Source: Pseudomonas bohemica (GTDB lineage: Bacteria; Pseudomonadota; Gammaproteobacteria; Pseudomonadales; Pseudomonadaceae). Taken from it: 64,000 nucleotides of DNA. Of this stretch, positions 38,737-41,666 are shown piece after piece (the stretch's first letter is position 1; the number at the start of each line of letters is the position of its first letter). The position numbers were made by a program, and so were the translations under genes. Under the pieces are notes generated by a model. It was not told where the DNA came from, searched no databases, and was given only the letters and a program-made list of their open reading frames with translations. The stretch spans positions 1-64,000 of the forward strand of contig NZ_NKHL01000116.1 of NCBI RefSeq assembly GCF_002934685.1, written 5' to 3'.

Positions 38737-38750
38737 TGAAACCGGTTTCA
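38737..38750. promoter_or_regulatory. PtxS operator of the kgu operon
   Basis: Perfect 14-bp palindrome TGAAACCGGTTTCA, identical to the published PtxS box. It is positioned just upstream of kguE. In P. putida and P. aeruginosa, 2-ketogluconate releases PtxS from this site. Confidence 0.9.
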
Positions 38751-38840: not shown

Positions 38841-39863
38841 TCAGGGGCGCTGTCGCGTCGAGCCGCGCACGATCAAACGGGCAGGGAAGTCGTACAGCCG
38901 CACCGGCTCCTGATCGCCACGCAGCCGGTTGAGCAAGCATTCGAAGGCCGTCACGCCGATGTCGTGGGTGGGTTGAGCCAGGGAAGTGATGCCGCTGCCC
39001 ACCAGCGGGTACCAGTCGAGTTCGTCGAGGGCGATCAGGCCGATGTCGTCGAACAGCTGGCAGCCCAGATCGTGCAACTGGCGTGTGGCGCTCAAGGTGG
39101 CCACGCCGTTGCCGGTGAAGAGCGCCTTGGGGCCGTGTTCGCTCTGGTCGAGAAATGCGCTTAACGCACCGCGCAGCATTTCACCGGTTTCACACACCTG
39201 GCCACGCATGCCGGCACGTTGGGCAATCCCTCTCTCGAACGCCTCGACCCGCTCGACACGTGAACTGGTGCCGTCCCGGGGTTCGGTGACCATGAGAATG
39301 TCGCGATAACCGGCTTGCTGCAGATGATCCAGCGCCTGCTTGACCGTGGCGATGTTATCCAGACCCACCAGGTCGCTTTCCAGTTGATCGACCTTGCGGT
39401 CCACCAGCACCATCGGCAATTCGCTGTGCAGTTCGCGCAGTTCGTCGAGGTGATGGCCAAGTGTGTTCACGATCAGGCCTTCGATGTTGTACGAGCGCAG
39501 CGCCGCCAGATGCAGGCGTTCCTGTTCGTCGTCGCGATCGGTGTTGCACACCACAAGGCTGTAGCCGTGTTTGCGGCAGGCGGTTTCGACGCCATGCATT
39601 ACGGCGATGGAGTAGGGATTGCGGATGTCGGCCACCAGCATGCCGATCAGGCGGGTACGGCCGCGTTTGAGGCCACGGGCCATCTGGTTGGGGCGATAAC
39701 CGAGGGTTTCGATAGCGTTTTCGATGCGCCGGGCGATGGCTTCGGACAGCAATTGACGATCTTCGCCAATGAAGCGCGAGACGCTGGCTTTGGAGACGCC
39801 GGCCATATCGGCAACGTCATTCATGGTGACGCGGGCGCGCGTCGGCGTGGGAATACTGTTCAC
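38841..39863 (-). CDS. ptxS: PtxS, LacI-family repressor of 2-ketogluconate genes
   Basis: 340 aa from a GTG at 39863 (AGGGTCAGG just upstream). The LacI HTH is clear (VTMNDVADMAGVSKASVSRFIGEDRQLLSEAIARRIENAIETLGYRPNQMARGLK in pieces), followed by the periplasmic-binding-like effector domain (LIGMLVADIRNPYSIAVMHGVE; GLIVNTLGHH; ALFTGNGVATLSA; PTHDIGVTAFECLLNRL). The longer in-frame frame to 39962 was rejected because it runs through the second operator. It represses itself and the kgu operon and responds to 2-ketogluconate. Length equals that of known PtxS as I recall it. Confidence 0.93.
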   Translation of the reverse strand: MNSIPTPTRARVTMNDVADMAGVSKASVSRFIGEDRQLLSEAIARRIENAIETLGYRPNQMARGLKRGRTRLIGMLVADIRNPYSIAVMHGVETACRKHGYSLVVCNTDRDDEQERLHLAALRSYNIEGLIVNTLGHHLDELRELHSELPMVLVDRKVDQLESDLVGLDNIATVKQALDHLQQAGYRDILMVTEPRDGTSSRVERVEAFERGIAQRAGMRGQVCETGEMLRGALSAFLDQSEHGPKALFTGNGVATLSATRQLHDLGCQLFDDIGLIALDELDWYPLVGSGITSLAQPTHDIGVTAFECLLNRLRGDQEPVRLYDFPARLIVRGSTRQRP

Positions 39864-39920
39864 GGCCTGACCCTTATTGGATTTGTCAGCAGGCTTTATT
39901 ACGCAGAGCGTGTGTGGCTC

Positions 39921-39934
39921 TGAAACCGGTTTCA
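39921..39934. promoter_or_regulatory. PtxS operator of ptxS
   Basis: A second perfect copy of TGAAACCGGTTTCA, 58 bp upstream of the ptxS start, giving autoregulation. Together with the copy at 38737 it brackets the ptxS gene. Confidence 0.9.
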
Positions 39935-40021
39935 GGAAACACCAAAGTGCGAGCGTCGTCAACTCGGGATCGGATGAAAGGTGATGTGGGCAGAGGTTGA
40001 GTCAGCTTCGGACACAATCCT

Positions 40022-40811
40022 TGTTGGAGTGAGCTTGCTCACGAAGGGCGGTACATTCACAGCAGATGCAGGTTTTGGAGGTCAGTCTTCGTGAGCAAGC
40101 TCACTCCTACAGGATCAAGCGTCATCGCCATAACCGGTATGGATCTTGGAATGCAGACTTGTGGGAGTGAGCTTGCTCACGAACGGGACGGTACATTCAC
40201 AGCAGGTGCAGGTTCTGCAGGTCAGCATTCGTGAGCAAGCTCACTCCTACAGGGTTAAGCGTTGGAGCCATAACGCCGTACGGGCCCTGGAATGCAGACT
40301 TGTGGGAGTGAGCTTGCTCACGAAGGGGCAGTACATTCACAGCAGATATAGGTTTTGCAGGTCAGCATTCGTGAGCAAGCTCACTCCTACAGGGTTAAGC
40401 GTTGGAGCCATAACTCCGTATGGACCTGGAATGCAGACTTGTGGGAATGATCTTGCTCACGAAGGGGCCGGTACATTCACAGCAGATGTAGGTTCTGCAG
40501 GTCAGTCTTCGTGAGCAAGCTCACTCCTACGGGGTCAATCGTTGGAGCCATAACTCCGTATGGACCTGGAATGCAAACCTGTGGGAGTGAGCTTGCTCAC
40601 GAAAAGGGCGGCACATTCACAGCAGGTGCAGGTTCTGCAGGTCAGTCTTCGTGAGCAAGCTCACTCCTACAGGGTTAAGCGTTGGAGCCATAACGCCGTA
40701 CGGGCCCTGGAATGCAGACTTGTGGGAGTGAGCTTGCTCACGAAGGGGCAGTACAGTCACAGCGGATGCAGGTTCTGCAGGTCAGCATTCGTAAGCAAGC
40801 TCAATCCCACA
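40022..40811. repeat. Tandem array of six REPINs
   Basis: Six units start at 40022, 40160, 40301, 40440, 40580 and 40721 (steps 138, 141, 139, 140, 141). Each has a left arm GTGGGAGTGAGCTTGCTCAC and a right arm GTGAGCAAGCTCACTCCTAC, enclosing about 50 nt (GTACATTCACAGCAG...). A spacer of about 48 nt containing GTTGGAGCCATAAC and GGAATGCAGACTTG separates them; that of the first unit is more diverged. Two spacer types occur: CGCCGTACGGGCCC after units 2 and 5, CTCCGTATGGACC after units 3 and 4. The 108 bp at 40228-40335 recur exactly at 40648-40755. It fills the space between ptxS and the ABC permease gene. Confidence 0.92.
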
Positions 40812-40832
40812 GGTCTTGCTTCGCTCTTGGGG

Positions 40833-41666
40833 TCACTGATTACCCTTGAACGTATCTCGCCACGCCAGCAGGCGTTTCTCCAGCATCGCCAGCACGCCGT
40901 CGCTGAGCTTGCCCAGCAGTGCGAGGACGATGATGGCGGCCAGCACGATGTCCGGGCGTGACGTTTCGCGGCCATCGCTGAGCAGGTAGCCAAGGCCTTT
41001 GGTGGCGGCGATCAACTCGGCCGCCACCAGAAACATCCAGGCCAGGCTCAACCCCGAGCGCAACCCGGTAAACAGGCCGGGCAGGGCTGCTGGCAGGAAC
41101 AGATGCAGGATCATCTGGCGCTGGCTGAAGCGATACATCTTGCCGACTTCCACCAGCTTGCGATCGATGCCGCGAATGGCCGCGACGCCATTGAGGTAGA
41201 CCGGAAAGAATGCACCGATGGCGATCAACACTATTTTCGAAGTCTCGCCGATGCCCAGCCAAAGCAGCAACAACGGCACCCAGGCCAGGCTGGGAATCGA
41301 GCGCAGGCCGGCGAAGGTCGGCTCCAGGTAGGCTTCGGCCTCCCGACTCAGGCCAACCCACGCGGCGAACAGCAGGGCCAGGCTCGCGCCGATGGCAAAT
41401 CCGCTCAACACCCGCAACAGACTGGCGCTGATGTGTTTCCACAGCGCACCGTTGGCCAGGTCTGTGAGCGTTGTAAAGATCTCGCTGGGCGCAGGCATCT
41501 GGTAGGACTGCACCCAGCCGATGCGCACGACGATTTCCAGCAACAGCAAAACCGCGACCGGCACCGCCAGACCCTTGAGCCGTACATGCCAGCGAGTAGG
41601 CGCCGCTGGCAATGCGGTTGGTGCGGCCTCTTCAGACTTCAGCGTTTCGGCTCTGGAATCGCTCAT
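40833..41666 (-). CDS. ABC permease, sulfonate/nitrate/taurine type
   Basis: 277 aa permease of the SsuC/TauC family with about six membrane helices after an N-terminal tail. The EAA loop appears as ELVEVGKMYRFSQRQMILHLFLPAALPGLFTGLRSGLSLAWMFLVAAELIA (seen in parts), where an ATPase would dock. Its ATG overlaps the stop of the binding-protein gene by 4 nt, so both are translated together. No ATPase gene follows; the REPIN array begins 21 bp downstream. It may use an ATPase encoded elsewhere, such as SsuB. Confidence 0.9.
   Translation of the reverse strand: MSDSRAETLKSEEAAPTALPAAPTRWHVRLKGLAVPVAVLLLLEIVVRIGWVQSYQMPAPSEIFTTLTDLANGALWKHISASLLRVLSGFAIGASLALLFAAWVGLSREAEAYLEPTFAGLRSIPSLAWVPLLLLWLGIGETSKIVLIAIGAFFPVYLNGVAAIRGIDRKLVEVGKMYRFSQRQMILHLFLPAALPGLFTGLRSGLSLAWMFLVAAELIAATKGLGYLLSDGRETSRPDIVLAAIIVLALLGKLSDGVLAMLEKRLLAWRDTFKGNQ

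What the first reader, a model, noticed from the sequence alone, without database searches (positions are those of the whole stretch)
40022..40811. Tandem amplification of a REPIN, six copies, with higher-order duplication
REPINs normally occur singly. Here six share a 138-141 bp period including a constant spacer, so the repeating unit is REPIN plus flank, not the REPIN alone. Spacer types A-B-B-A and an exact 108-bp match between 40228-40335 and 40648-40755 (offset 420 bp, three units) point to recent unequal recombination or replication slippage. It sits between ptxS and the sulfonate-type permease gene.
Basis: seen in the sequence. Interest (0 to 1): 0.62.

Follow-up and report, generated by a model that had tools for sequence, protein, structure and literature searches.

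The report
Ordinary tandem array of six REPINs
Between two Pseudomonas genes, a small hairpin-forming mobile element called a REPIN stands six times head to tail with its spacer, a known kind of arrangement that this genome shows at several other places.

Summary
Six 89-91 bp REPINs lie at 40023-40811 with five 49-50 bp spacers (steps 138-141 bp), and the exact 108-bp match at offset 420 is real. Each REPIN folds far better than shuffles. It is not exceptional. Tandem REPIN clusters that include flanking sequence were described in P. fluorescens SBW25 in 2011 (16 clusters, largest four REPINs plus a REP). This genome holds at least six other tandem REPIN loci and two RAYT genes, one flanked on both sides by arrays of this REP class. 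None of 11 loci from other genomes with the same gene pair has an array there. Best explanation: RAYT-type seeding of a REPIN, then local REPIN-to-REPIN recombination or slippage. The array starts and ends in REPIN with flanks unlike the spacers, and spacer sequence of three arrays recurs next to REPINs at other loci. This hints that spacer-plus-REPIN cassettes spread through REP homology.

The parts
40023..40111 (+). REPIN 1
   Evidence: DNA fold z -7.4
40112..40160 (.). spacer 1 (divergent type O, 76-80% to the others)
40161..40251 (+). REPIN 2
   Evidence: z -7.7
40252..40301 (.). spacer 2 (type A)
   Evidence: identical to spacer 5; no fold beyond shuffles, z 0.6
40302..40391 (+). REPIN 3
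   Evidence: z -8.8
40392..40440 (.). spacer 3 (type B)
40441..40531 (+). REPIN 4 (left REP core with two changes)
   Evidence: z -5.3
40532..40580 (.). spacer 4 (type B', 91.8% to spacer 3)
40581..40671 (+). REPIN 5
   Evidence: z -7.9
40672..40721 (.). spacer 5 (type A, identical to spacer 2)
40722..40811 (+). REPIN 6 (right REP core with two changes)
   Evidence: z -8.2
40228..40335 (.). 108-bp tract identical to 40648-40755 (offset 420)
38841..39866 (-).
   Evidence: within the ORF; LacI-family hits, none over a curated cut-off; the name PtxS comes from no call
40833..41666 (-). SsuC/TauC-like ABC permease gene; its stop lies about 20 bp from the array
   Evidence: ORF; best match NF008470 194.8 bits, below the 347-bit cut-off
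39921..39934 (.). palindrome TGAAACCGGTTTCA, presumed operator of the regulator, between gene and array
   Evidence: two exact matches in the window, none in 100 shuffles; operator role recalled

Best explanation
It is a tandem array of a RAYT-associated REPIN. Step 1 (inferred): a REPIN, a non-autonomous element of two inverted REPs, was placed in the gap between the permease gene and the LacI-type regulator gene by a RAYT transposase. Step 2 (inferred): a second REPIN with part of a foreign flank came to lie 49-50 bp away, or a REPIN-spacer-REPIN block arrived as one piece. Step 3 (inferred from the anatomy): misaligned pairing of the near-identical REPINs during recombination or replication multiplied the spacer-plus-REPIN unit, giving REPIN-(spacer-REPIN)x5, and later exchange homogenised a tract of units 2-3 and 5-6. 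No host function is needed or shown. The array would be expected to fluctuate in copy number.
For: Six REPINs and five spacers with both outer edges at REPIN ends; the 60 bp outside each edge show no similarity to the spacers above shuffles. All six REPINs form long hairpins, z -5.3 to -8.8, while spacer 2 does not. The REP 18-mer occurs 247 times (reversed control 0); 60 exact REPINs. Two RAYTs, NF047646 at 148 and 163.4 bits against a cut-off of 80; the C118 one has REPIN arrays of the same class on both sides, period 166. Other tandem REPIN loci in the genome: C21 396 kb, C58, C69, C77, C80 and C118. In 11 loci from other genomes with permease and regulator in the same order, 0 have an array; the gap is 207-275 bp in four of them against 970 bp here; L071 and P. 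abietaniphila L072 have one REP pair each in it. In print: local REPIN amplification and deletion, including loss of five of six tandem REPINs in an E. coli mutation-accumulation line (PMC8049555, passage).
Against: Whole units are 85-96% identical, so the expansion is not very recent and its steps cannot be replayed. The draft assembly (121 contigs) was not checked against reads. RAYT-driven transposition is not shown here, and the second RAYT (C106) has no REP of this class within the 4 kb read. Nunvar et al. 2010 (passage) consider recombination and slippage alone unlikely to explain BIME differences between strains.
Confidence: 0.8

Rival explanations
1. The RAYT itself built the array, for example by repeated copying from single-stranded circles, rather than host recombination or slippage.
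For: An array of the same REP class lies on each side of the C118 RAYT; Nunvar et al. 2010 propose RAYT as a driver of BIME dynamics (passage). Spacer sequence recurs at other loci.
Against: The shared spacer and graded divergence between units fit ordinary unequal exchange. Arrays with one REP of this class per unit and periods of 37-118 bp in the same genome suggest a general local process.
Confidence: 0.15
2. The array is kept by selection as a regulatory or topological device (transcription end or mRNA protection for the permease gene, insulation of the regulator promoter, gyrase or IHF site).
For: It lies just past the permease stop and before the regulator's presumed operator; BIME-2 arrays are said to bind gyrase (PMC2817692, passage).
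Against: Absent from 11 of 11 loci with the same gene pair in other genomes; REPINs 4 and 6 have changed arms. The scan found no promoter-like or terminator-like site, but that scan takes loops of 3-8 bases only, so it would not see a REPIN hairpin.
Confidence: 0.08
3. Assembly artefact: the true copy number is lower or higher.
For: Other arrays in this draft lie at or near contig ends (C38, C69, C118), so the assembly broke at some of them.
Against: This array is inside a 226,935-bp contig with distinguishable units, and its longest exact direct repeat is 108 bp.
Confidence: 0.1

Closest known systems
Ordered tandem REPIN clusters of P. fluorescens SBW25 (Bertels and Rainey 2011, PMC3116915)
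   Same: Tandem repeats of near-identical REPINs including flanking sequence; REPIN clusters beside RAYT genes too (section 11 read whole; passages).
   Different: The largest SBW25 cluster has four REPINs plus one REP; here six REPINs. Their typical unit carries a flank on each side (legend of Fig. S7); here both edges are REPIN, with no spacer sequence found in the 60 bp outside.
E. coli BIME-2 / tandem REPIN clusters
   Same: Tandemly repeated REP-pair units; a copy number change observed in one line (PMC2817692 and PMC8049555, passages).
   Different: REP sequences not compared here; no gyrase or IHF binding tested here.
P. brassicacearum CCUG 51508 array in L098 11320-11948
   Same: REPIN-like unit plus spacer, period 135, 4.7 copies, 97% matches.
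   Different: Other REP subtype by eye and another locus; runs to the contig end.

Membership tests
REPIN | two inverted REPs of one class separated by a short sequence | tested here: met
   six of six
REPIN | forms a long hairpin | tested here: met
   z -5.3 to -8.8, 0 of 200 shuffles as good for each of six
REPIN | abundant, dispersed in the genome | tested here: met
   247 exact REP 18-mers, 60 exact REPINs
REPIN | RAYT in the genome with cognate REPs beside it | tested here: met
   C118 RAYT with the same REP core on both sides; the C106 RAYT has none of this class within the 4 kb read
REPIN | mobilised by RAYT | not testable with these tools
   needs an experiment
Ordered tandem REPIN cluster (SBW25 type) | tandem near-identical REPINs with constant flank | tested here: met
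   REPINs 86-93% and spacers 76-100% identical
Ordered tandem REPIN cluster (SBW25 type) | flank sequence also repeated at the outer edges (f1-REPIN-f2), said to be typical, not required | tested here: not met
   outer 60 bp score 6 on each side against spacers, shuffle means 7.6 and 7.3; so a variant layout
BIME-2 | gyrase or IHF binding | not testable with these tools
   no call bears on it

The most novel reading that the evidence does not exclude
Arrays like this spread as spacer-plus-REPIN cassettes: a REPIN already in place acts as a landing pad, and REP homology (recombination, conversion or template switching) adds a block copied from another array, so the unit of spread is larger than the REPIN. 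Signs: the C58 array spacer (98 bp) recurs at C14:214661-214758, joining a REPIN with a different loop to a C58-like one; the spacer of the RAYT-flanking C118 array recurs in the C80 array; 25 bp of this array's spacer recur in the genome only beside the REPIN at C27:67131, which is also the closest of 47 other REPINs compared.
Probability: 0.3. Interest if true: 0.5.

Novelty: new member of a known kind. Interest (0 to 1): 0.2.

Why it matters
As an array it adds one example, with more REPINs than the largest reported for SBW25, to a known class. If the cassette reading holds, it would bear on an open question, how REPs and REPINs disperse, by showing traces of homology-guided block copying beside RAYT transposition.

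Tried and rejected
Rejected: unusual or new element (the class is in print and repeated in this genome). Rejected: amplification of local flanking DNA, since the spacers resemble neither outer flank. Not resolved: which of the array and the 67-kb REPIN is the source. By eye, the orthologous 67-kb gap has no REPIN in G187 and REPINs of other classes in G219 and G020, which gives no direction. Led nowhere: plasmid blast (no match); promoter and terminator scan (none found); spacer of the RAYT-flanking array in 15 congeners (0 of 15, no positive control there); a paper search for REPIN with 'flanking sequence' and 'duplication' (0 papers).

Rows left out. One search kept 80 regulator loci of 332 found; 10 of the 80 have the permease upstream within the fetched stretch, and these plus L032 are the 11 compared; some of the other 70 loci are cut short by contig ends. 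L033 and L034 had the regulator but no permease hit. Of the 29 permease loci L152-L180, 27 showed no regulator, and I judged L153 and L167 repeats of L082 and L079 from identical permease identities, gaps and contig lengths. L152 ends 52 bp past the permease. Of the 11, L091 and L094 carry an ABC-ATPase-like frame in the gap and L091 holds only the end of the permease, so they are weaker comparisons. The REPIN comparison used REPINs in the loci listed in the script (47 others), not every exact one. Spacer sharing was tested genome-wide for three arrays only; the rest only among 16 fetched stretches, where C21, C69, C77 and C14 (125 kb) showed no shared array spacer. The 398 genomes are a sample of the genus.

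Full report
WHAT IS THERE. The window carries six 89-91 bp REPINs in one orientation at 40023-40811, separated by five spacers of 49-50 bp. TRF reports 40020-40813, period 140, score 1198. REPINs are 86-93% identical to each other, spacers 76-100%, and whole units (REPIN plus following spacer) 85-96%. The 108-bp exact match at offset 420 is confirmed and is the longest exact direct repeat. Units 1 and 4 are 85.1% alike, units 2 and 5 are 95.7% alike, and REPINs 3 and 6 are 91.1% alike. This looks like a homogenised tract within an older array rather than a clean recent three-unit duplication (inference).

EACH UNIT. Every REPIN folds as a long hairpin in DNA parameters (z -5.3 to -8.8, 0 of 200 shuffles as good for each), while spacer 2 does not (z 0.6; 148 of 200 shuffles as good). 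REPINs 4 and 6 each have one REP core with two changes.

EDGES. The array begins and ends with a REPIN. The 60 bp outside each edge score 6 against the spacers, below the shuffle means of 7.6 and 7.3. So no sign that the unit drew on local flanks. The simplest path is two REPINs 49-50 bp apart, then misaligned exchange between REPINs (inference). The typical SBW25 cluster is drawn with a flank on each side of the REPIN (figure legend).

GENOME CONTEXT. The genome (6.49 Mb, 121 contigs) has 247 exact copies of the REP 18-mer (117 and 130 on the two strands), with 0 for the reversed control, and 60 exact REPINs (the pattern is its own complement, and each listed place appears on both strands). 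Of the 50 places listed there, I count 21 in six clusters: C21 396 kb (4), C27 (4, this array), C58 (4), C69 (2), C77 (3) and C80 (4). TRF confirms arrays at these places and on both sides of the C118 RAYT. Arrays with one REP of this class per unit also occur (C38 twice, C34, C21 383 kb, C3, C6; periods 37-118). In the C38 unit at 90 kb a REP-like arm of another type stands opposite, by eye. Two RAYT genes match NF047646 above its cut-off. The one on C118 has REPIN arrays of the same REP core on both sides; the one on C106 has none of this class within the 4 kb read.

RELATIVES. From 80 regulator loci in other Pseudomonas genomes, 10 have the permease upstream, and L032 adds one. None of these 11 has a tandem REPIN array in the gap; TRF finds only short runs of period 6 or 11 in four of them. 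Gaps are 257, 275, 264 and 207 bp in L071, L072, L078 and L082, against 970 bp here; the other seven gaps are 853-1007 bp but filled with other sequence. L071, L072 and L084 hold one REP pair of this class within 3 mismatches, L082 one degenerate REP site and L078 none. By eye L083 holds a REP pair of another type inside a long inverted repeat, and L091 and L094 hold an ABC-ATPase-like frame. The array is therefore lineage-specific at this sampling (one genome per species); strain variation is untested. Elsewhere in the 80 loci TRF (score 200 or more, period 30 or more) gave 10 arrays in 10 loci, of which L083, L084, L098 and L105 look REP- or REPIN-like by eye; the L098 one has 4.7 copies of 135 bp at 97%.

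SHARED SPACERS. A 25-bp part of this array's spacer (found in four of its five spacers within 3 mismatches; spacer 1 falls outside) occurs at only one other place in the genome, next to the REPIN at C27:67131, and in none of 397 other genomes of the genus searched with up to 3 mismatches. That REPIN is the nearest to the array among 47 others compared (mean 86.8%, next 84.4%). The C58 array spacer recurs at C14:214661-214758 at 90% over 98 bp, where it follows a REPIN with a different loop and precedes a C58-like REPIN. The spacer of the RAYT-flanking C118 array recurs five times in the C80 array at 81-89%. Among the 16 fetched stretches the other REPIN arrays showed no shared array spacer. 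This suggests that blocks larger than a REPIN are copied between loci, with junctions at REP homology. It is inference from three cases, with no null model and an incomplete assembly.

WHAT IS KNOWN. Bertels and Rainey 2011 (PMC3116915; section 11 read whole, passages) report 16 ordered tandem REPIN clusters including flanks, the largest with four REPINs plus a REP and over 700 bp, and say that higher-order clusters indicate a second mechanism of formation. They also report two nearly identical tandem REP arrays at distant places in SBW25 (passage), which is near to the cassette idea. PMC8049555 (two passages) treats local REPIN amplification as a rate process and reports the loss of five of six tandem REPINs in one line. 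PMC2817692 (passages) describes BIME-2 and doubts that recombination and slippage alone suffice. I did not see spacer sharing among REPIN arrays in the passages read, apart from those two SBW25 REP arrays. The searches were made, in an open-licence library only, so this is not a claim of absence from print.

VERDICT. A genuine but ordinary tandem REPIN array. Interest is low for the array itself and moderate for the cassette-copying hint.

Noticed in passing
L067 695-1386 (G000 C6 about 75.2-75.9 kb): Tandem run of about 19 REPs with a 36-37 bp period.
   Followed up: no
L190 1-1549 (G000 C118): RAYT gene (415-906, minus) flanked on both sides by REPIN arrays of period 166; the contig starts inside an array; the spacer is shared with the C80 array in opposite orientation.
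   Followed up: partly
L066 560-858 (G000 C14 about 214.6-214.9 kb): Two REPINs with different loops joined by a 98-bp spacer of the C58 array.
   Followed up: partly
L079, L081, L083, L084 and L032, gap between permease and regulator: In P. graminis/petrae and other relatives the same gap holds what looks by eye like a long (about 800 bp) inverted repeat, with other hairpins nested in some.
   Followed up: no
window 38737-38750 and 39921-39934: Two exact copies of the palindrome TGAAACCGGTTTCA, one on each side of the LacI-type regulator gene.
   Followed up: no
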